A stretch of 64,000 bases of DNA, from contig JAPEUQ010000003.1 of NCBI GenBank assembly GCA_027946365.1, positions 2,356,001 to 2,420,000 on the forward strand, read 5' to 3'. Shown here piece by piece: positions 6,960-56,056 of the stretch. How positions within the stretch are numbered: the stretch's first letter is position 1; every line of letters starts with the position of its first letter. The stretch is from Kalmusia sp. IMI 367209. Taxonomy: Eukaryota; Ascomycota; Dothideomycetes; Pleosporales; Didymosphaeriaceae. The notes under the pieces are model-generated. The model saw only the letters and a program-made list of their open reading frames with translations, did not search any database and was not told the origin of the DNA. The position numbers and the translations under genes are program-made.

Positions 6960-8021
6960 ATGCGCTTCACTACAGCTGCTGTCGTAGTCGCATCAATCAG
7001 CAAAGTTCTTGCTCAGCAAGAAATTTACCTTGGTTTCAACTCTGGAGCGACGACCGATGACAATAAGGCGAAAACGCAAGCCGACTTCGAGAAGGAGTTC
7101 AATGCTCAGCAGAAACTCCAATTTTCGCCCGGCCTCTTCAACAGCGCAAGACTATACTCTAACATCCAACGATACACCACAGATACGCCCATCGAGGCCT
7201 TCGCCGCGGCGGTCTCCACGAACACAAAATTACTGCTAGGCATTTGGTGTTCCGAGGTGGACTCAATCGACAAGGAACTCGGTGCATTGAGCAAAACTAT
7301 TGACCAATATGGCAAAAACTTCACCGACCTTATTGTTGGTATATCTGTTGGGAGCGAAGACCTATATCGCGTCTCGGAAAGTGGCATAAAGAACAGCGCT
7401 GGCCCGGGTCAGGACGCCGACACCATCATCGGTTTCATCAAGGATACCCGCGATGCACTAAAAGACACTGCGCTTTCAAAGATCCCTGTAGGACATGTCG
7501 ATACCTGGACTGCGTGGGTAAACAAATCCAACAAAGCCGTGATCGAAGCTGTCGATTTTGTTGGAGCAGACATCTACCCATATTACGAAGACGACAAGGG
7601 CAACGACATTTCGAACGCGACAACCATCTTCGAGACTGCATTGAATGCCACCGAGAAGGCAGCGGGTGACACACCCGTCTGGATCACCGAGACCGGATGG
7701 CCAACAACGGGTCCGAAGTGGGGCCAGGCCCAGCCATCTGTCGACAACGCGAAGACATACTGGGACGAGATTGGATGTACATTATTCGGGAGGACGAACA
7801 CCTGGTACTATATACTTCGTGATTCGAATCCGGAGAACAAGATGAAATTTGGGGTGGATCCGGAATTGGACAGCAAAACCGCGTACAATCTGACGTGCCC
7901 AGCAAATTCTGGTGCACCAGCGTCTATCAATACCCAGCCATCTGCTGGTAGTATTTTGGCAACTCCTGGGGCAGGTGCGATCGCTCTGGGGTGGCTGATA
8001 GCATGTGTCTTTACTGCTTAG
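6960..8021 (+). CDS. GH17 glucan endo-1,3-beta-glucosidase, secreted, probably GPI-anchored, 353 aa
   Basis: Cell-wall beta-1,3-glucan hydrolase or remodelling enzyme of glycoside hydrolase family 17, related to the fungal EglC/Bgt group. Single exon. The chosen ATG at 6960 starts a good signal peptide (RFTTAAVVVASISKVLA, cleavage before QQ); an in-frame ATG at 6918 would bury it under 14 extra residues. The proton donor is probably Glu133 in VGSED and the nucleophile Glu244 in WITETGWPTTG, both hallmark GH17 positions. Several N-glycosylation sequons (NFT, NKS, NAT, NLT) are present. The C-terminus is a small-residue stretch followed by a hydrophobic tail (AIALGWLIACVFTA), as expected of a GPI signal. 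It should act at the plasma membrane and wall. Family call is confident. Confidence 0.92.
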   Translation: MRFTTAAVVVASISKVLAQQEIYLGFNSGATTDDNKAKTQADFEKEFNAQQKLQFSPGLFNSARLYSNIQRYTTDTPIEAFAAAVSTNTKLLLGIWCSEVDSIDKELGALSKTIDQYGKNFTDLIVGISVGSEDLYRVSESGIKNSAGPGQDADTIIGFIKDTRDALKDTALSKIPVGHVDTWTAWVNKSNKAVIEAVDFVGADIYPYYEDDKGNDISNATTIFETALNATEKAAGDTPVWITETGWPTTGPKWGQAQPSVDNAKTYWDEIGCTLFGRTNTWYYILRDSNPENKMKFGVDPELDSKTAYNLTCPANSGAPASINTQPSAGSILATPGAGAIALGWLIACVFTA

Positions 8022-29965: not shown

Positions 29966-32324
29966 TCAGCGGCCCGGCATCGATATTGGGGGCGCGGCGC
30001 CGCCGCCGATGAGCGACCTGCGATGGGCGCGCGGGTTCGCGTCCAGCGTTTCGGTGGCCTCTTCGACGTGTGCAGCGTCGTCTTGGTCGTCAGCGGCGTC
30101 GGCAGCGTCCTCTGGGTCGTCGCCTAGCAGGCCGCGGTTCGCCAGGCGGAGGGCGAGGATCTGCTGTCTGAGGTCTACGACGAAGCGCTGCATGTCGTCG
30201 AAGGGGAGGGAGGCAGCGGGGTGGTGGTCGTCTTGGTTGCCGTCGCGGTCGTCGGGTGAGGAGGTGGGCGCGGCGTACAGGTGCAGAGCGGCATCGAGGG
30301 ACTTCTCTGCCTGGAGGGCTTTGCTCTGGCGCCACCAGGCGTCTGCGGCGAGGATGGCCCAGAAGGCGGCCTTGCGGCGGCGCGAGCCGAGGCGGAGGGT
30401 GCCGATGCCGGGGCGGACGGTGTAGCAGGCTGAGATGCGTTGGGTGAGGAGGGCGGCGCCGACGGGGCCGACGAGGTTGGACTCGAGGATGCGGGAGCCC
30501 CAGCGGGCGGCGTCGTCGGTGGCGGAGGTGCCGCGGAGGCGGAGGAGTTCGAGGGCGAGGGCCAGCGTGCGCAGCGCGTAGAAGGGCGCTGCGCTGCGCT
30601 GCCGCTCCGTGTAGCTGTAGCTCGCCCACTTGATCCACTCGTCGATCTTCTCTGTGCGGATCTTGGTCGAGGGCGTCACGGGGGAGAGGAGCGCGGAGAG
30701 GGCGGCCATTTCGGCGGCCCCCGCGTAGTGCTGCCATGCCTTGTCGTTGTTGAAATCCGTGCATAGGACCTCGTACGTGCTGAGTGCAAGCTTGGTGTCG
30801 CGAAGCATGAAGCAGTAGTCCGCGAGCCTGCGCATCAGCGCCTCAGGAGCGTCCGGGCGGTAGAATCCGTGCTGGGAGTCGTAGTTTGAATTCGACGAGG
30901 TGATGGCGGATGCAGAGCTCGTGCGCGAGGAGCCGAATGTCGTCCAGCGCTTGGATAGGGACATGAAGCGACCAGAGAGACCGCGGCGACGAGCGAGGAC
31001 TTGCTCGTTCCATTGGTGGATGTTGCGCTCCATGTGGGGGACTATAGATTGGGCGACGAGTTCACGAACGAAGGTCCGTATAGCAGTGACGTCGGAGTCG
31101 GGTATGTAGGGGGTCGGGTCTGTTATGTCGTCCGCGGTTTCTACAGCACGTAGTCAGTTTTACGTAGATGATGTAACAGGATGAAGTGGATGTACCTCGC
31201 TTTTGGATCTCTGCAAGCTCTTCCGACGCAGACATCCATCCGCAAGTTGGTAACCGCACAGCGTCGTCATCTGAAGATATACACTGCTCGCCTTTCAACC
31301 GTAGCAGGTGGCAATTGAGCCCAAAATGCCGCTTCATGGAGTCAAATGTTGCATTAGATTTGGTGATATCGCCCGTCTCTTCCTCATGTATGAAAACGTA
31401 ATATCGCAAGAAGAGGCTGTCCACCCACGGCGGGAACCGAAGATCACCCTGTTGCTGTCTATGGTACAGATCTCGTAGCTGCTGTACCGGGTCTGCGCTT
31501 CGCGAGCTCGTCACTATAACGCCTGCGACGGGATGCGCGAACGATTCGTGAGGGACTAAAGGGAGCCCTGAGAGTAACCGCCGGAGGTACAATGTGTAGA
31601 ACGGAGATGTCGCACTGTCTTGAGGGGCTGGTTCGCCTTGGTTCAAATAGTCAGACACCATGCCGTGAGTATTGAACTCGGAGTACTGTAGGTGACGGTC
31701 CACCAGCTCTTCAATTTGCGCAACATTGCCGCCCATACGCCGTGGTGGTATCGAGCTCGAGGGTGTTCTTCCGGCCCCTTGCTGCGGGTCTGGCCTTAAG
31801 CCTTCATTCGGACCAACAAACCGCACGCCGAAATCCTCATAGCTCTTGCTTGCCCCGACGCTGTCTCGGATGGTGACCTTGCCAGTGACTTGTTCCCCAA
31901 ATGGCCGCAGCAATTGTAGCAGCCCACCCTCCAGTCCCTTGCCAAGTATTAATTCCTCCGTCTCTGGGTCGGCCACCACTACCACGTGTGGCGCAAATGC
32001 CTGCTGTATAAGCGTTCTATGCTCATCCGACACCCCCGGCGGTAAAGCTCCCGGCGTGCGTGTGCCATTGTGTCTTGATCCGGGAGAGAACGCCGAGCCA
32101 GGTAGTATTGAGGCGGTCGGCGTTGCGCTACCAGAGCTGGGCCTCGATGTCGATATTGAGGCTGTCGATTCGAACAGCTTATGCAGCGACGGATTGGACC
32201 TTCGGTAAGGCAGAGACGCCAGGGACGATGCGGGTGAGGCTCGTTGTTTGGGGAGGATCAGGGACGTCTCCAGGTCGGCGGGATACCTGGGGGGCTTCGG
32301 CGTGGCATCTTGCACGGGCGTCAT
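29966..32324 (-). CDS. TRS85: TRAPP complex subunit TRAPPC8/Trs85, 767 aa as read, 2 exons
   Basis: Trs85 is the TRAPPIII-specific subunit that directs this Rab (Ypt1) exchange factor to autophagic and Golgi membranes. Exons are 31196-32324 and 29966-31140, with a 55-bp intron. The N-terminus is Ser/Pro-rich. The conserved part includes LIQQAFAPHVVVVADPETEE, SDYLNQGEPAPQDSATSPFY, LPLVPHESFAHPVAGVIV and, after splicing, TAIRTFVRELVAQSIVPHME. Next come RLADYCFMLRDTKLALSTYE and DFNNDKAWQHYAGAAEMAAL, typical of the Trs85 solenoid. The C-terminus as read ends APPISMPGR. If one G is added to the G5 run at 29988-29992, it would end NIDAGPLSPALERSPEKDDL plus FEGA, stopping at 29913, which looks more natural. 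Start ATG at 32322-32324, divergent from CCA1. Confidence 0.88.
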
Positions 32325-32681: not shown

Positions 32682-34729
32682 ATGCCATTTATGAGTCGAG
32701 CCTTCTGTTTTCGTTCATCGCGAGGAATTTCCTTTTATGCCAGAGCCAACACGCTGCCACCATTCCAACGACTCAGATTCAAACCACAACCTGGTCACGC
32801 TACTCTCCGTCGGCCGCTATCAATTCTTTTCTTCTCGCGTATGCCTGCGGGAAGGTTACCATCACCCAACCTGCAGGACGAGCCGTTCGCTAAACGGCGG
32901 AAGACTGTGCCTTCTCAGCCTCGCTTCATACGGTCCTACAGCGGGATGGCCTCTCATCCAGACACGAACCCAACCACCCTGGAGCTAACCGAGGAAGAGA
33001 CTAAGCTTCGGGATCTGCTTCTCGCCGTTGCAGCCTACATTGACGATGCTTCTTCAGCTGAAGAAGCTGTTGCTGGCGTCACTGTACCTGAAGAAGTCGC
33101 TCGAGAAAAGATTGTATTGCGATGGACTGGCGGCTGGGTGCGCGATAAGCTGCTCGGGGTTGGCAGCCACGATGTTGATGTTGCCATTAACAAAATGACT
33201 GGCGAAAATTTTGGCTTGAAGATGCTAGAATACCTCAAGGTCGCTGGTAATCTTGAGAAGCATGACTTCGGCGCAGCTGAAAGCGGTAAGATAATGTCTG
33301 GTTTGCACACCATCAAGGCGAATCCCGAGGCCTCCAAGAACTTAGAAACAGCGACTATCAAGGTCATGGGCATTGATCTTGATCTCGTCAATCTCAGAAA
33401 AGAGACCTATGATGAGGTCAGTCGCAATCCGCAAATGGAATTTGGTACGGCAGAGGAAGATGCCATGCGACGAGACGCTACGGTGAACGCCATGTTCTAC
33501 AACTTGAACACACAGCAAATCGAAGACTTCACAAAACGAGGTTTTGAAGATATGGCGGCGAAGATCATCAGAACGCCACTAGAGCCCTACCAAACTTTCA
33601 AAGATGATCCCCTTCGAGTGCTGAGGCTAATCCGCTTCGCAAGTCGATTGGATTACACAGTCGAGCCGGAAACGGCCAAGGCCATGGCAAACAAAGACAT
33701 ACAAGAAGCCTTGAAAGTAAAGATCAAACGCGAGAGGGTAGGGATCGAGACGGAAAAGATGCTCAAAGGACCGGATCCCGGCATGGCTCTCCGGCTAATC
33801 GACGAAGCCGGTCTATATGATACCATCTTCACTGACCCGACACGCGAGATGGATTTCCAGCCAGATGCCGAACATTATCGCAAAGGATATCAATTCATGG
33901 ATTCTTGGCTCCGGGAGAAAGAAAAATCGAAGTATCCCAATATTCGCCAGACCCTGTTAAGTACCCCAGACGAGGAGTCTGACGAGCAATATCTTGCGTG
34001 GGTATGCACAGCTGTGATACCCTGGGCCGATGCGCCGAAAGTCCCTCCTCCAAAAAAGAACAGGCAACCATTGCCCGCGGCTTATCTTGTAGCCCAGGAA
34101 GGTCTCAAGGCGCCAAACCGAGTCTGCGATGTCATTGCAGCATCTTTGAATAACTATGAAGCAATCTCTCATTTAGTCGGGGAGTGTCAGAAACCTCATA
34201 AAGGAGCTGAGTCACCTGCTCAGAGAGAGATTTTGGGTATGGCTCTGCGGAGTTGGGGCCGCACCTGGAGGACTCAAGTGTTCTTTTCGCTTCTACACGA
34301 GGTTGTGTATGGCTCTCAGACCATTGAAGGTATGCAAAATATTTCTTGTCCCCTACATTGCCGAATCTTTCCCTTTCACATCTCAGAATGAAAATCATAC
34401 GCTTCGATAATCGACTGACCATCTCTAGGAGTACTTCACCAATACGCCAAGTTTTTGAACCGAATTACCGAATTAAATCTCCTCGATGTCGTCAACCTCA
34501 AGCCTCTCGTGAACGGCACCCAGCTCGCCAAGGCCTTGGAAGTGAAACCCGGTCCCTGGATGAAAGATGCTCTCGATGTCGTATTAGCGTGGCAACTACG
34601 CAACCCCGAATTTACCGACCCGACCGATGCAATTGAGGAAGTAAAGAAGACCAGCAAAAGTGAGCTACCCTCGAAATTAATTTCCCATTTCCTAACGCTT
34701 ACGATCCGCCCTCTCTTTTCGCAGTCTAA
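32682..34729 (+). CDS. CCA1: Alternative spliced product: CCA-adding enzyme alone, 627 aa
   Basis: Same start and first intron (34330-34428, 99 bp) as the fusion form. If the junction intron 34660-34724 is removed, the frame runs from EEVKKTSK through ATC to TAA at 34727-34729. This gives a free nucleotidyltransferase with the usual C-terminal end of fungal CCA1 (yeast protein 546 aa plus a longer leader here). The Tti2 part would then be untranslated, because its first in-frame Met (34830) lies well inside the Tti2 domain and out-of-frame ATGs precede it. Both isoforms may be made; transcript data decide. Confidence 0.6.
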
Positions 34730-35755
34730 GACAGATGCTGAGAACACAAATCCGCCATGGAAGAGCCGTGAAAACAAGTCATTCCTAGACCTGCTGCACT
34801 GGGTTGTACGTGCTGCAGAGGAGAAAGATATGCGCGAGTACTTCAAGCTGGTTAGGCCACCGGTTTTCCGAATGCTAGAAGATAGCGATCTCGTATGGAA
34901 TGCGAAGGCCTGTCAGCTCATTACCTTGCTGGCAAGAAAAGTATCACCGAATCTAAGAGAAGAGTGTCAGAATCTATTTTCTGAAGATCTGTTTGGTTTC
35001 TTCAATTACCTCCCCACGTTGACCCCTGCGCACGAATCTGCCCAGCTACTCACACATGTGTATCCGGCCCTGATATCTTTCGTACCTGCAGCAGAACACA
35101 GGATAGCAGACCAGGAACGGTCGAGTGCATCTACGGCAGGTACCGATTTCGCACTCAGTGAGAAAGATATCAAATTTCTCGACAAGGTCGTCCGTCAAGG
35201 TGCTATCGCCGTATTACGGCACTCTCCAACGCCGACCACATACCCTGAACTCGCCACCGTCGTACTAGAACATCTCTCTCGACTTATCATCGCTCTCGAA
35301 ATTGAATGGGTCAAGCACACCAACGACATTCTTCCCTTGTTGCACGAAATCTTTCGCGATAAACTTAGTCTAACGCATCCTGAACTCCCCATTGCTGCGA
35401 TAAAATGCCTCAAGGTCGCTATTGCGAAGGGGTGGCCGCGTATGAGTGAGTTTTTACCATCTTCCACCACCCAATTTAAGCTCGAGATATAGGCTGACAT
35501 GTTCGAATTGTAGATTTAGACCGTCTGCAGGAGATGTACCTCTCCATTGCCACAGCTTGGGTCAATTGTTCAGAATACGACACCGACTTGAGTACAATGA
35601 AAGATGAGCTGCAGACAGCCGTTGTTTACGTAGACTCTGTGTTTAACAGTAAGGCACATGGTGAGGATGCACTACATTGGTGGAAAGATGAAGTGCAAAG
35701 GGCCAGATCAGAAAAGTCACCGTGGATAGACATGCTCGAGCAGGTCAAAACTTGA
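32682..35755 (+). CDS. CCA1: tRNA CCA-adding enzyme fused in frame to a Tti2 domain, 968 aa (intron-retained form)
   Basis: Residues 1-626 are a class II tRNA nucleotidyltransferase, which adds the 3' CCA to tRNAs. Motifs: RWTGGWVRDKLLG (148-159), SHDVDVAI with the two metal-binding Asp (164, 166), EDAMRRDATVNAMFYNL (259-275) and DPLRVLRLIRFASR (309-322). The N-terminus is mitochondrial-like, with in-frame Met at 1, 4, 54 and 89. Residues about 640-968 match Tti2, the partner of Tel2-Tti1 in maturation of PIKK kinases: LFGFFNYLPTLTPAHESAQL, TYPELATVVLEHLSRLIIAL and LPIAAIKCLKVAIAKGWPRM. Exons are 32682-34329, 34429-35445 and 35514-35755. A canonical-looking 65-bp intron (34660-34724) lies at the junction; see the separate entry. 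The fusion requires that it be retained. Confidence 0.85.
34660..34724 (+). other. Predicted intron at the CCA1-Tti2 junction, 65 bp
   Basis: Donor GTGAGC, branch-like CTAAC (about 34692-34696), a pyrimidine-rich run CTCTCTTTTC and acceptor GCAG. All elements and their spacing match the other introns of this window. Yet the intron has no stop in the CCA1 frame and its length is 3n+2, so retention keeps the frame open into Tti2 and splicing closes it with an immediate TAA. Confidence 0.65.
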
Positions 35756-39266: not shown

Positions 39267-42025
39267 TTAAGTCTGGCCTTGAACATTTCTGCTTGAATCT
39301 GCAAATTGTTGTGCAGCATAAGGATGTGGGTAGCTCTGCCCTGCAGTAGTAGCGCTATAGTGCTGCTCCATGAAAGTAGCTCCAGCAAAGCTCTGCTGAG
39401 GACTCAATGATAACGATCCATGAGGTGAATACTGCCCTGGGACATTATAATAAGGCTGTGGAAAAGGCACACCTTGGTAGCTCATTGGCTGTGGTTGGTG
39501 CCCGTACATTCCTCCGTATTGTGCTTGATTCTGATAGTAGAAAGGGTGCGGCCCCGGGAGAGGCGCAGAGTAAGCTCGCTGTACAACAGGCGGTTGTGGA
39601 AAGTCGTAAGGCCCGCGATATAACGGTGCGGAAGCCCCCTTATTCTTTTCGAAAAGCTTTGAGGGAATTAACCGCGACCGCGCATGTTTAAAGAGTGAGT
39701 TATCGAATATGGCACTCATCTCCTCGAGAGATACAGCTTCGTTCGTGCATGGCACGAAGAAGTAGACTAATATAAAGCCGAAAACGCTGAGTGCACTATA
39801 TATCCATTAGTAACAAGCGACTAGCTGATTGCCTTTGATATTTACGTGAAAATTCCAAAGAGCTTAACACGAGACCATGCTAGGGCTTGGGGGACGACAA
39901 GTGTAAGGAGTCCTGCGCCTGAGTCTGAGATCAGCACATGACGTGAATATTAACTCGCAAGGAACGCACCGAAAAAGTTGACGAAAACCCCTACTGACAT
40001 CTGTTGATATAGCTTAGCAAGTACTTCTGCAATCTTTGCCGTATAGAATCGCACTTACTCCCAAGTCTCGCGCTTCGTTAGGCCAGATTTCCGCGGAATA
40101 AAGAAATGGTACCGCACCAACACCGGGAGAATAACAGAATGCTAGGAAGAAGACAAAGGCAGCGACTGCTCCTGCCTTGCTAGGATTCTCTGGAGGGATG
40201 GTCATCAGGCCTGTTAGGCAGGCTAGCATAATGGTTCCACTGCCTAACGACACAAGCAGTAGTCGCCTTCGTCCACGTAGTAGGCGTTGTAGCTCTAACA
40301 GCTTCTGACGTCGATTTTTTCCTTTCTTCATAGAAAAATCTTTCTGAGTGTTAGGGACAGAGGGGTACAAGTCCTCCAAGGAGGTGTCAACTGGGAGAGG
40401 CTCGACGAGAAAGTAGGCGACAGCGGAAGAAAGAACGGTACAAGCGGCAAAACCTAGACTCAACCTATAGTTGTTGCTGTTTCTTTCATCCTCTTTCATA
40501 TTCTTATCAAGATCCGCTGCCTGGTAAAAGTTGGTCCCAAGAAAGGCAAATATACTATACTGGATCAATACAATGCTCATATAAAAGAGGCTAAAACAAC
40601 TCACTTGATACCTGACAGATGCTGAGTTAACATAACGATGATAGTAGCGATCATGGCGTTCCTATTTCTACCAAGCGTAATGAGTCGTCGCAAGCGTTCG
40701 GTGTAACGGATAGGGGGCTGGTAGGTCCCAAAATCTGCCTCGGATCGTTTGCGCGCTAAGGCCCGCTCGGTCTGAATCTGGAAGTATGTGTAGCAGAATT
40801 CTTCTGCGGCCAATAATCTTTCCTTTCTCAATTGCACTAGCGTATCAAATGCGGCGATATATCGTTCCTGAACAATCAGCCAGCGCGGACTTTCGCAACC
40901 AATGTATACTAGAATGATAAGAATCAGTGCGGGAATGGCGCCGCTAAGGATCTGGCTCCGCCATTGATCTGGTTTCCGGAAGAAGTAGTTTGCACCATTG
41001 CCTGTCAGGAGACCAATAGCAACGAAAGTCTGCCACGACACAAGGACTCGGCCCCGCTTTGCTGGGGGAAGGATTTCTGACTCCCAGATTGGTATGATAG
41101 AGGCTTTTGCTCCAATTCCAATACCTAGGAGTATCCTCCAGGCAAGGAGATGGCGCCAGCTACTGCATCGAGATGCACCTATTGATCCAGCAAGACTGCA
41201 GCAAGCGGCGATGAACACCGAACCGCGACGGCCGCCACACCAGGTCGCATTGCAGATTGGATCAATCATCAGGGGACCAATCATAGCAGCAAACCATAAG
41301 ACGGCATTCACGGTCCCGAACTCCCAGATATCAGCACCGGATCGCTGTATCTTCGGTGAGACACCAAAATCTCCAGGCCAACCAAGATTGCCATTAGCGG
41401 CTTGGTTCCATCCTAATTAATTATAAGTAGATTGATAACGTAATTCATTAAGATACTAACCTTGTACCCATGGAGCTAAGCAGCACACACCGAGTGTGAC
41501 CAGAAGGGACTTTGGCTCCTTCCAGAATTTCTTCGACTTCTGAATATCCAGCGCCTTCCAGTCGTGCGGATGGAGTACTCGATTCACTGTTTCAGTCGAA
41601 GACGTGTCCGATACCGGCTCAGTATGATCAGGGTCACTGTTCGGGTCTCGCTCGTGATTTGCATAGTCTATGTACAATGCGTTAGCAACAAGTCGAATGT
41701 TCAGACGTAGGTGAGAATCAAAAAGCAGCTTACTACTCCTAGCAAGTTTTGCACCAATGAGCAGCTCACGTTCAGTGACAGATTGCTTGCCTTGGAAATG
41801 CTCTTCGAAAAGGTGTTTAACATGGCGCTTCAGATCATCGAGTTCCAATGCTTCCAATGGATTTTGCATCATCCGATCCTGTCTATTTTCGGATCGTATA
41901 GATGCGGCTCCATGATCGTACTCTGTAGGTATTGCATCAAGGTTAGGTCCAGGAAACCCTGGGTGTGTATTTTGAATCCATTCTCGAATTGGTAGCTCAT
42001 TGGGCCCTGGTATTTGTGTTGCCAT
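39267..42025 (-). CDS. MFS sugar transporter (sugar porter family) with long N- and C-terminal extensions, 813 aa, 7 exons
   Basis: Twelve-TM-type plasma-membrane sugar or polyol porter. Exons are 41734-42025, 41461-41667, 40605-41412, 40059-40554, 39970-40000, 39846-39924 and 39267-39795; introns are 45-66 bp and all phases agree. The 200-residue N-terminus (ELLIGAKLARS, DWKALDIQKSKKFWKEPKSL) is followed by LVTLGVCCLAPWVQGWNQAA, then GIGAKASIIPIWESEILPPA, the signature CESPRWLIVQ, and after splicing TQHLSGINIFAFLGTNFYQ. Late motifs are YSAEIWPNEARDLG and VPCTNEAVSLEEM. The C-terminal tail of about 120 residues is rich in Gln, Pro and Tyr. This layout (N-terminal extension with ELL-GAKLAR) matches a known group of long ascomycete sugar/polyol porters. 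Substrate unknown. Confidence 0.86.
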
Positions 42026-55016: not shown

Positions 55017-56056
55017 TTACTGCCCCTTCGACTTGGCCGCGCTCTTCTTCACCAGCTGGTCCCTAACGACGGGGAAGAACTTGTCTGCCATGAAGACGTC
55101 GCCCTTCTCGTTGGGGTGCTCGCCCTCCCTCGTCATGGTCTTGTAGTCGAACCCCGTGTACATGTCGACGAGGATGACGGCACTGTCCGCCGTATTGCTC
55201 CTCTGGGACCACCCTTCCATGGCATTGTTGTAGTCCTTGATGCGGTCCGCGACCTCCTGGCCAAACAGGGTCGGATCGATGGGAATCAGCTTGCTGACGA
55301 TCAGAGTCGTCTTGGAGTTGGAAGCGCGCATCTGACCAAGCAGCGTGTCGTACGCGGCGATCAGCTTGGACGTCGAGATGTTGGCCACGGCGTCGTTGGT
55401 GCCGACGTGCATGACGATGACATCTGGTTTTGCGCTCGCGAGCCAGGGTTTCAGGGAGCCTTGGGCGGCGTAGTCGGTTACGCGGGCACCTGAGTGGCCT
55501 TCGTTGTCTTTGTCGAAGGGGACCGTGTTGCCGTTGAGCGTGCAGGAGCCCGTGGGTGTTTTGTGCGAGCCCACGAAGTCGACATAGGAGACGCGCGCGT
55601 TTTGCAGCTTGGTGTAGAGGTAGGCGCGCCAGCAGGTCTGAAGGAACATTAGATTGGTGTTGGTGCGGGTTTGTGAGGTTGAAGACACGTGATGGGGGCT
55701 AGTAATATGCTGGCTTGGGGTAGTCAAGGAAAGGATATAGCCTGATGCGGGGATGACAGGGCATATCCAACCACATGACCAGTACATTAAATGCCAATAA
55801 CGGAATTGAAATCATCCGAACTGTTTCCCTTCGAGAGCAAGTTTCCAAAAATTTTCCAAACTCTTTCTGCAATTGACGACTATGTGGATTGACCTCGGAC
55901 TCGAAATGGGAGTAAACTTACAATCTCAACAATAGAAGCACCAAACGGCATGAGGTTGACAACGGGTGAAGCCTGAGTCGCTGGAGCAGCAACAGGAGCA
56001 GCAGCCGCAACGCTGAAAAGCCCAAGGGCCGAAGTGAATATCGTAGAGCGAACCAT
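55017..56056 (-). CDS. Secreted SGNH/GDSL-type hydrolase, 251 aa, 2 exons
   Basis: Predicted secreted esterase/acyl-hydrolase of the SGNH superfamily (carbohydrate-esterase-like). Exon 1 (55922-56056) encodes a signal peptide (VRSTIFTSALGLFSVAAAA) and block I MPFGASIVEI, with the nucleophile Ser41. Exon 2 is 55017-55637; the 284-bp intron (55638-55921) is the longest in the window. Exon 2 starts TCWRAYLYTKLQNARVSYVD. Block III is VIVMHVGTNDA, and the catalytic His is in REGEHPNEKGD. Two departures from the family are visible: Asp to Ala before the Ser (GAS in place of GDS), and Glu where the Asp of the usual DxxHP triad would be. Activity is therefore plausible but altered. Substrate unknown. 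Confidence 0.85.

What the first reader, a model, noticed from the sequence alone, without database searches (positions are those of the whole stretch)
34600..34830. CCA1 and Tti2 share one frame, with an intron acting as a possible on/off switch for the fusion
Seen: the CCA-adding enzyme frame continues without a stop into a full Tti2-type domain. At the junction sits a textbook 65-bp intron (GTGAGC, CTAAC, pyrimidines, GCAG). Splicing gives ...KKTSKI-stop; retention gives a 968-aa fusion. The Tti2 N-terminal part (RPLFSQ, PWKSRENKSFLDLLHWVV) lies partly inside and just after this intron and has no ATG of its own. Inference: alternative splicing sets the ratio of free tRNA-maturation enzyme to Tti2, the PIKK (TOR/ATM) co-chaperone subunit, linking tRNA end-processing with TOR-pathway assembly.
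Basis: partly seen in the sequence, partly recalled or inferred. Interest (0 to 1): 0.88.

Follow-up and report, generated by a model that had tools for sequence, protein, structure and literature searches.

The report
Splice-controlled CCA1–Tti2 gene fusion
In a large class of fungi one gene appears to make either a tRNA-finishing enzyme alone or that enzyme joined to a helper of growth-control kinases, depending on whether one tiny intron is removed.

Summary
At 34660-34724 a 65-bp intron-like stretch lies between a CCA-adding enzyme and a Tti2 domain. Retained, it gives a 968-aa fusion; spliced, 627 aa ending KKTSKI-stop. The window matches Kalmusia sp. IMI 367209, whose deposited protein is the fusion. 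Among 120 listed long homologues (of 157), 119 keep the stretch as conserved protein, predicted to be one helix. In relatives it also behaves as an intron. CCA1-only proteins leave the fused frame at its 5' end; four C-termini long enough to test match its removal (12/12, 7/8, 5/5, 5/5 residues), one does not. Among unannotated ORFs spanning intron 1, those without intron 1 (read as cDNA) lack the segment in 14 of 15; those with an insert there (read as genomic) keep it in 25 of 27. Of 799 columns, only the 5'-site column is polymorphic within NGT-codable residues and only the 3'-site column within Q/K. Best reading: a deeply conserved alternative intron decides CCA1 versus CCA1-Tti2. Splicing in Kalmusia itself, and regulation linked to TOR, are inferred, not shown.

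The parts
32682..34329 (+). Exon 1: CCA-adding enzyme (CCA1). In-frame ATGs at 32682 (968/627-aa forms) and 32946 (MASHPD, 880/539-aa forms)
   Evidence: P0001 (880 aa) starts at the second of these
33120..33572 (+). PolyA_pol head domain of CCA1 (residues 147-297)
   Evidence: one match to this family found in the genome
34330..34428 (+). Intron 1, 99 bp; used to tell cDNA-derived from genomic ORFs in relatives
   Evidence: 83 of the 120 listed hits end near this position
34429..34659 (+). Exon 2a: C-terminal end of CCA1 (PGPWMKDALDVV...EEVKKTSK)
34660..34724 (+). Alternative 65-bp intron; when retained it encodes the rest of S627 to Q648, the first helix of the Tti2 part
34725..35445 (+). 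Exon 2b: Tti2 domain in the retained form; in the spliced form the frame shifts and stops at once
34727..34729 (+). TAA stop codon of the short (CCA1-only) form
34644..35360 (+). Tti2 domain (residues 622-860), continuous only if the 65-bp intron is retained
   Evidence: E 2.5e-35; one match to this family found in the genome
35446..35513 (+). Intron 3, 68 bp; its donor lies 716 nt after the short-form stop
35514..35755 (+). Exon 3: C-terminal end of Tti2, stop TGA 35753-35755

Best explanation
One gene, two products. The pre-mRNA carries CCA1 followed in frame by Tti2, with an optional 65-bp intron (exitron-like) at the domain border. If the spliceosome removes it, the frame shifts and a stop codon lies right behind the acceptor, so a complete free CCA-adding enzyme is made. 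If it is kept, the 65 bases encode the first helix of Tti2 and translation runs on to give a CCA1-Tti2 fusion, the only evident source of Tti2 in this genome. The ratio is set mainly by how efficiently a suboptimal intron is spliced (low-scoring branch site here; inferred AAG acceptor in many other species). Shown in the sequence: the two frames, the domains, one match to each family in the genome. Shown in relatives at protein level: both products, with the same intron borders. Inferred: that Kalmusia splices it too, and that both proteins are functional.
For: Anatomy. Of 120 listed long homologues, 120 align from CCA1 into Tti2, 114 carry both PF01743 and PF10521 and 119 keep the segment. 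Tails predicted by removing the same 65 bp: P0220 12/12, P0243 7/8, P0204 5/5, P0215 5/5, each the sole best of 252 sites by share of residues; random tails reach these scores in 0, 1, 15 and 0 of 2000 draws. Segment absent in 14 of 15 unannotated ORFs without intron 1 and in 2 of 27 with an insert there; Fisher p 3e-8. Splice-site columns unique among 799. The segment is better conserved than any other 22-residue stretch of the Tti2 part (0 of 298 windows reach it) and is one predicted helix (540-559 of P0001). One match each for PF01743 and PF10521 in the genome.
Against: No RNA from this species was available and the deposited Kalmusia protein is the fusion. No DNA of relatives could be read, so their splice sites are inferred from protein. 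That ORFs without intron 1 are cDNA is itself an inference. The long form among such ORFs rests on one cluster, P0041, which could also be a genomic loss of intron 1. P0248 ends in a tail that does not fit the conserved acceptor (3/10). The short tails of P0145, P0149 and P0143 fit (2/2) but say little; those of P0148, P0144 and P0151 (1/2) and P0244 (2/4) do not help. P0191, P0206, P0231, P0245 and P0195 were not explained. High conservation of the segment is not unique in the whole protein: 40 of 128 windows in the 150 residues before it reach the same level. A 65-bp length is not a multiple of three, unlike textbook exitrons.
Confidence: 0.85

Rival explanations
1. Constitutive fusion: the stretch is ordinary coding sequence that happens to resemble an intron; CCA1-only proteins are gene-prediction artefacts.
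For: 119 of 120 listed fused homologues keep it as conserved protein; the deposited Kalmusia model keeps it; annotated short models could be predictor errors.
Against: Short forms also occur among unannotated ORFs, nearly only where intron 1 is gone; four testable tails match removal of the same 65 bp; the two splice-site columns are unique among 799; 2 of 2991 decoys score as high.
Confidence: 0.07
2. The intron is always spliced in vivo and Tti2 is made from its own mRNA or by internal or re-initiation.
For: Short forms outnumber long ones among unannotated ORFs without intron 1 (14 to 1), with the length limits of the two searches as a bias.
Against: Without the intron the Tti2 frame has no Met before residue 684, about 60 residues into the domain match; the segment is the best conserved 22-residue stretch of Tti2; P0041 has no intron 1 and keeps the segment. 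An internal start at M594 would still need retention.
Confidence: 0.05
3. Splicing is mainly a brake: the short mRNA is a nonsense-mediated-decay substrate that lowers fusion output, and the short protein hardly matters.
For: The short stop is followed by a long 3' part and, in Kalmusia, by intron 3 whose donor lies 716 nt downstream, a classical decay context (recalled).
Against: The short product looks like a complete CCA enzyme: the solved plant enzyme 9kma matches up to residue 538 of P0001, directly before the junction, and the solved cca1 chain 9ns2 up to residue 526. CCA1 proteins of other ascomycetes that appear unfused end at about the same place. Short forms occur in 15 unannotated clusters of the kind (P0220 included). 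PF01743 has only this one match in the genome.
Confidence: 0.1

Closest known systems
SKI7/HBS1 alternatively spliced fungal gene (Marshall et al. 2013, PMC3597508; abstract and passages seen)
   Same: Ancient alternative splicing, kept in many fungi, that makes two functionally distinct proteins from one gene.
   Different: There, in several ascomycetes, alternative 3' splice sites choose between two related proteins; here retention decides whether a second, unrelated protein is appended.
PTC7 retained intron of Saccharomycetaceae (same paper; passages seen)
   Same: Both the spliced and the unspliced mRNA are translated, and the stop-free intron is conserved.
   Different: PTC7's intron is 3n long and adds a membrane helix to one enzyme; this one is 65 bp, shifts the frame and switches a stop codon between two gene products.
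Exitrons (exonic introns; review PMC10985678, abstract and passages seen)
   Same: Stop-free intron inside conserved protein-coding sequence, exon-like GC (0.477 against 0.49-0.50 in the exons and 0.39-0.41 in introns 1 and 3).
   Different: Length not a multiple of three. The review says retained exitrons give the major isoform; here short forms were more frequent among unannotated ORFs without intron 1. The main text of that review holds no word beginning with 'fungi'.
Separate CCA1 and TTI2 proteins (chains 9ns2 'cca1', taken from memory to be S. pombe, and TELO2-interacting protein 2 in 7f4u, 7ole, 9wjy)
   Same: The two halves match these by profile (E 3.1e-109 and about 2e-10).
   Different: Separate proteins there; one gene here. 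The 22-residue segment lies outside both of these matches (they end at residue 526 and start at 567 of P0001), though inside the Pfam Tti2 match.

Membership tests
CCA-adding enzyme (eukaryotic CCA1) | Nucleotidyltransferase head domain and CCA-enzyme fold | tested here: met
   PF01743 84.3 bits against 23; Foldseek top hit 9kma, E 2.6e-22
CCA-adding enzyme (eukaryotic CCA1) | Adds CCA to tRNA 3' ends | not testable with these tools
   needs an enzyme assay
Tti2 (TTT complex subunit) | Sequence match to the Tti2 family | tested here: met
   PF10521 122.8 bits against 25.2; profile match to TTI2 chain 7f4u_C, E 2e-10; a single-sequence search did not find TTI2 in the PDB
Tti2 (TTT complex subunit) | Fold match to solved TTI2 | tested here: inconclusive
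   The 50 Foldseek rows shown for the whole model are CCA enzymes and a few helical-repeat proteins; no TTI2 row is among them
Tti2 (TTT complex subunit) | Works with Tel2 and Tti1 on PIKKs | tested here: inconclusive
   A Tel2 domain is present in the genome; Tti1 not searched; no interaction data
Exitron | Stop-free intron inside conserved coding sequence | tested here: met
Exitron | Spliced out in some transcripts | tested here: inconclusive
   Protein-level evidence in relatives; no RNA from the window's species
Exitron | Weaker splice signals than ordinary introns | tested here: inconclusive
   28th percentile overall, branch site 4th, donor 47th, acceptor 78th percentile of a consensus-selected set
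Exitron | Length a multiple of three | tested here: not met
   65 bp
Alternatively spliced two-protein fungal gene (SKI7/HBS1 and PTC7 kind) | Same alternative event conserved across distant species | tested here: met
   Residues compatible with the splice sites in 120 of 120 rows (5') and 119 of 120 rows (3'), with short forms from several genera ending there; protein-level only
Alternatively spliced two-protein fungal gene (SKI7/HBS1 and PTC7 kind) | Both products functional | not testable with these tools
   needs complementation

The most novel reading that the evidence does not exclude
A clade-wide genetic switch: an intron about as old as the gene fusion sets, and in response to growth or stress shifts, the share of pre-mRNAs that make free CCA enzyme against CCA1-Tti2, so that tRNA end-maturation and assembly of TOR/ATM-type kinases and Tra1 are tied by one splicing decision. 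The retained form tethers a tRNA-finishing enzyme to the TTT co-chaperone.
Probability: 0.22. Interest if true: 0.92.

Novelty: new variant of a known kind. Interest (0 to 1): 0.8.

Why it matters
Few fungal alternative splicing events are known to make two distinct proteins and to be conserved over long times. Here a 65-bp intron that doubles as one protein helix merges or separates two unrelated proteins, at least one of which (Tti2) is essential in S. pombe (PMC6868236, passages). It would mean that CCA1-Tti2 annotations in this fungal class show only one of two products, that Tti2 dosage may be set by splicing efficiency, and that the codons at both splice sites are held by two jobs at once. 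It is testable with public RNA-seq alone.

Tried and rejected
DNA of relatives: the search for related loci with alignment A1 in genome contigs (29 stretches matched, none confirmed) and viral contigs (49 matched, none confirmed), and blastn of part of the gene (34429-35445) against plasmids gave nothing, so the orthologous introns could not be read as DNA. A search with the Tti2 part alone returned 14 ORFs, sources lgn, jgi and ena only; all 14 lie on the Tti2 side and were read as exon-limited ORF calls, not as evidence for free Tti2. The alternative acceptor at 34734 (in-frame, 943 aa) scores 15.0 bits, 4th percentile, and was not taken up. P0064 and P0185 (annotated t1 and t2 of strain NU459) splice in this region but in other ways and were not counted as the same event. 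Papers (listings seen only): none held both 'Tti2' and 'tRNA nucleotidyltransferase'; the listings showed no title on a CCA1-Tti2 fusion or this intron. These searches cover only open-licence PMC papers.

Full report
WHAT IS THERE. The window is G000:C23:2356001-2420000 of a 42.8-Mb genome. A deposited protein identical over the query region, P0001, is named CCA tRNA nucleotidyltransferase, mitochondrial, of Kalmusia sp. IMI 367209, and its longest contig has the length of C23, 3992429 bases. The gene on the + strand has exons 32682-34329, 34429-35445 and 35514-35755, with introns 34330-34428 and 35446-35513. Inside the second exon, 34660-34724 has all parts of an intron. Kept, it gives 968 aa (880 from the ATG used by the deposited model); removed, it gives 627 aa ending KKTSKI-TAA. 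The protein is a CCA-adding enzyme followed by a Tti2 domain. A fold search with the whole model returned CCA enzymes at the top; no TTI2 chain was among the 50 rows shown, and a single-sequence PDB search with the Tti2 part found none either, so the Tti2 naming rests on the Pfam and profile matches. The families PF01743, PF10521 and PF10193 (Tel2) each have one match in the genome, searched in six frames.

THE FUSION IS OLD. A search with the junction and Tti2 part found 157 proteins, of which 120 are listed. Its length limits (0.55 to 1.75 times 968 aa) favour fused proteins, so it says nothing about how common separate genes are. All 120 align from CCA1 into Tti2; 114 carry both PF01743 and PF10521, and the other six (P0061, P0062, P0078, P0087, P0093, P0120) are unannotated ORFs without the head domain. 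The named organisms are, as far as I recall their taxonomy, Dothideomycetes of many orders, plus Coniocarpon (P0113; Arthoniomycetes) and one record labelled Quercus suber (P0107), an oak, which I take for a fungal contaminant. In 119 of 120 the residues encoded here by the intron are present: S/G-E-L...H-F-L-x-L-T-I-x-P-L-F-x-Q/K; P0064 is the exception. In 33 aligned sequences this 22-residue segment has mean column identity 0.74 against 0.483 for the rest of Tti2 and 0.689 for CCA1; 0 of 298 other windows in Tti2 reach it, but 40 of 128 windows in the 150 residues before it do. The AlphaFold2 model (33 sequences, mean pLDDT 85.3, pTM 0.70) makes it one helix, residues 540-559 of P0001, between the last CCA1 helix (526-534) and a poorly predicted loop at 561-565. 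So the stretch is real coding sequence, and a Tti2 without it would lack its first helix.

IT ALSO BEHAVES AS AN INTRON IN RELATIVES. A search limited to shorter proteins (464-aa query, so at most 812 aa) gave 2435 hits, 120 listed. Of these 120, 83 stop near intron 1, 33 stop near the junction and 4 run on into Tti2. The 33 include eight or so that look like unfused proteins of other classes (for example P0237, P0247, P0251-P0253). P0244 of Verruconis gallopava is named 'hypothetical protein, variant'.

TWO-FRAME TEST. If the same 65 bp are removed, the short protein's tail must be the downstream exon read in another frame. I asked, for 252 acceptor positions each, how many residues of the nearest fused protein are compatible with the tail. 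At the predicted position P0220 scores 12/12, P0243 7/8, P0204 5/5 and P0215 5/5, each the only site as good by share of residues. Random tails reach these scores in 0, 1, 15 and 0 of 2000 draws. P0220 against a second partner, P0195, itself a frame-shifted gene model, scores 6/12, still its best of 51 sites. P0145, P0149 and P0143 score 2/2 but have tails too short to be telling. P0148, P0144 and P0151 score 1/2 and P0244 2/4, against more distant partners. P0248 does not fit (3/10; it fits 11/11 at another place). Of the odd longer tails, P0147 fits 19/22 in the same shifted frame near the junction; P0155, P0156 and P0157 fit less well (10/13, 11/13, 11/13); P0191, P0206, P0231, P0245 and P0195 are not explained.

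cDNA AGAINST GENOMIC ORFS. The unannotated ORFs (sources jgi, lgn, ena) appear to be called without splicing, since so many end at intron 1. So an ORF that crosses intron 1 without an insert probably comes from RNA, and one with an insert from DNA. In one search, 25 of the 120 listed are unannotated, and all 25 cross: 24 carry an insert and keep the segment, one (P0041, contig 3165 bases) has no insert and keeps it. In one search, 98 of the 120 listed are unannotated; 81 do not span intron 1. Of the other 17, 14 have no insert and lack the segment, P0210 has an insert and keeps it, and P0220 and P0254 have extra residues and lack it. P0220's extra stretch (26 residues) has the length seen in two annotated proteins; P0254 ends like the unfused proteins. 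Fisher p is 3e-8 with all rows, 6e-10 without these two. For Alternaria the contrast is direct: P0189 (99.5% identical) breaks off at intron 1, while P0145 and P0165 cross it and end QTDK-stop. P0228 ends the same way. The two searches have different length limits, so 14 to 1 is not a splicing ratio, though it suggests that splicing is common.

A TRACE OF THE SPLICE SITES IN PROTEIN. Over 120 fused rows and 799 well-filled columns, only one polymorphic column is confined to S, G, R or C, the residues with NGT codons: residue 627 (S 57, G 62, R 1), where the GT of the donor lies. Only one polymorphic column is confined to Q and K, the residues with CAG or AAG codons: residue 648 (Q 64, K 55, one gap), the last codon before the acceptor. 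Residues 628-629 are E-L in 120 of 120, as GAG-CT of the donor would give. In the 64 rows with Q, the second residue after it is K, N, S, R, D or E in 61, as an immediate TAA, TAG or TGA in the shifted frame would need. Protein constraint and shared ancestry can produce part of this pattern; that both unique columns fall exactly on the two borders is hard to explain otherwise.

STRENGTH OF THE INTRON. Against 74 introns of the same genome, the candidate has an average donor and a good acceptor but a poor branch site; intron 3 is at the 92nd percentile, intron 1 at the 50th, the candidate at the 28th. The training introns were chosen by consensus, branch site included, and the window was part of the training set, so percentiles are rough. 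A weak intron that is sometimes passed over by the spliceosome is the simplest way to set a standing ratio.

HOW IT LIKELY WORKS. Splicing makes free CCA enzyme, complete at about the place where apparently unfused relatives end. The solved plant enzyme 9kma matches up to residue 538 of P0001, directly before the junction, and the solved cca1 chain 9ns2 up to 526; solved TTI2 matches begin at 567, after the segment. Retention makes the fusion, the only evident source of Tti2. A free Tti2 by internal start at M594 is not excluded but also needs retention. Tti2 is essential in S. [quoted passage not shown] Whether the ratio is regulated, and whether the tie to CCA1 has a purpose, is open.

NOVELTY. 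Known relatives in kind are SKI7/HBS1 and PTC7 (PMC3597508, abstract and passages) and exitrons (PMC10985678, abstract and passages). In the listings, which cover open-licence PMC only, I saw no paper on a CCA1-Tti2 fusion or this intron. I rate it a new variant of a known kind: retention decides whether an unrelated second protein is joined.

LIMITS. No RNA from Kalmusia, no DNA from relatives, no protein evidence. Database proteins are clustered at 90% identity, so counts are of clusters, not species. The meaning of the source labels jgi, lgn and ena was not given; I did not rely on it beyond the intron-1 test.

Noticed in passing
32682-32946: The CCA1 frame has an upstream ATG with an Arg-rich 88-residue extension that by eye resembles that of relatives P0002, P0004 and P0008, and a later ATG used by the deposited model. 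Two starts could give mitochondrial and cytosolic forms of both splice products, so up to four proteins.
   Followed up: no
29966-32324, - strand: Two ORFs match consecutive parts of TRAPPC-Trs85 (profile 1-253 and 291-452): probably one divergently transcribed gene split by an intron, its start about 360 bases from the CCA1 gene's first ATG.
   Followed up: partly
34660-34734: A second acceptor 10 bases downstream would remove 75 bp in frame and give a 943-aa fusion without the first Tti2 helix; it scores poorly.
   Followed up: partly
P0064 and P0185 (Dothideomycetes sp. NU459, g1853 t1 and t2): Two annotated isoforms both splice in the junction region but differently: t1 drops most of the segment in frame, t2 joins the residue at the donor to a far downstream part of Tti2 in frame.
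   Followed up: partly
P0204, P0215, P0243, P0220 compared with fused relatives: The inferred acceptor is AAG rather than CAG (K at residue 648 in 55 of 120 rows), which would be an unusually weak 3' splice site kept over a long time.
   Followed up: partly
6960-8021 +, 40601-41284 -, 55017-55787 -: Other window ORFs match glycosyl hydrolase family 17, a sugar transporter and a GDSL lipase; ordinary.
   Followed up: no
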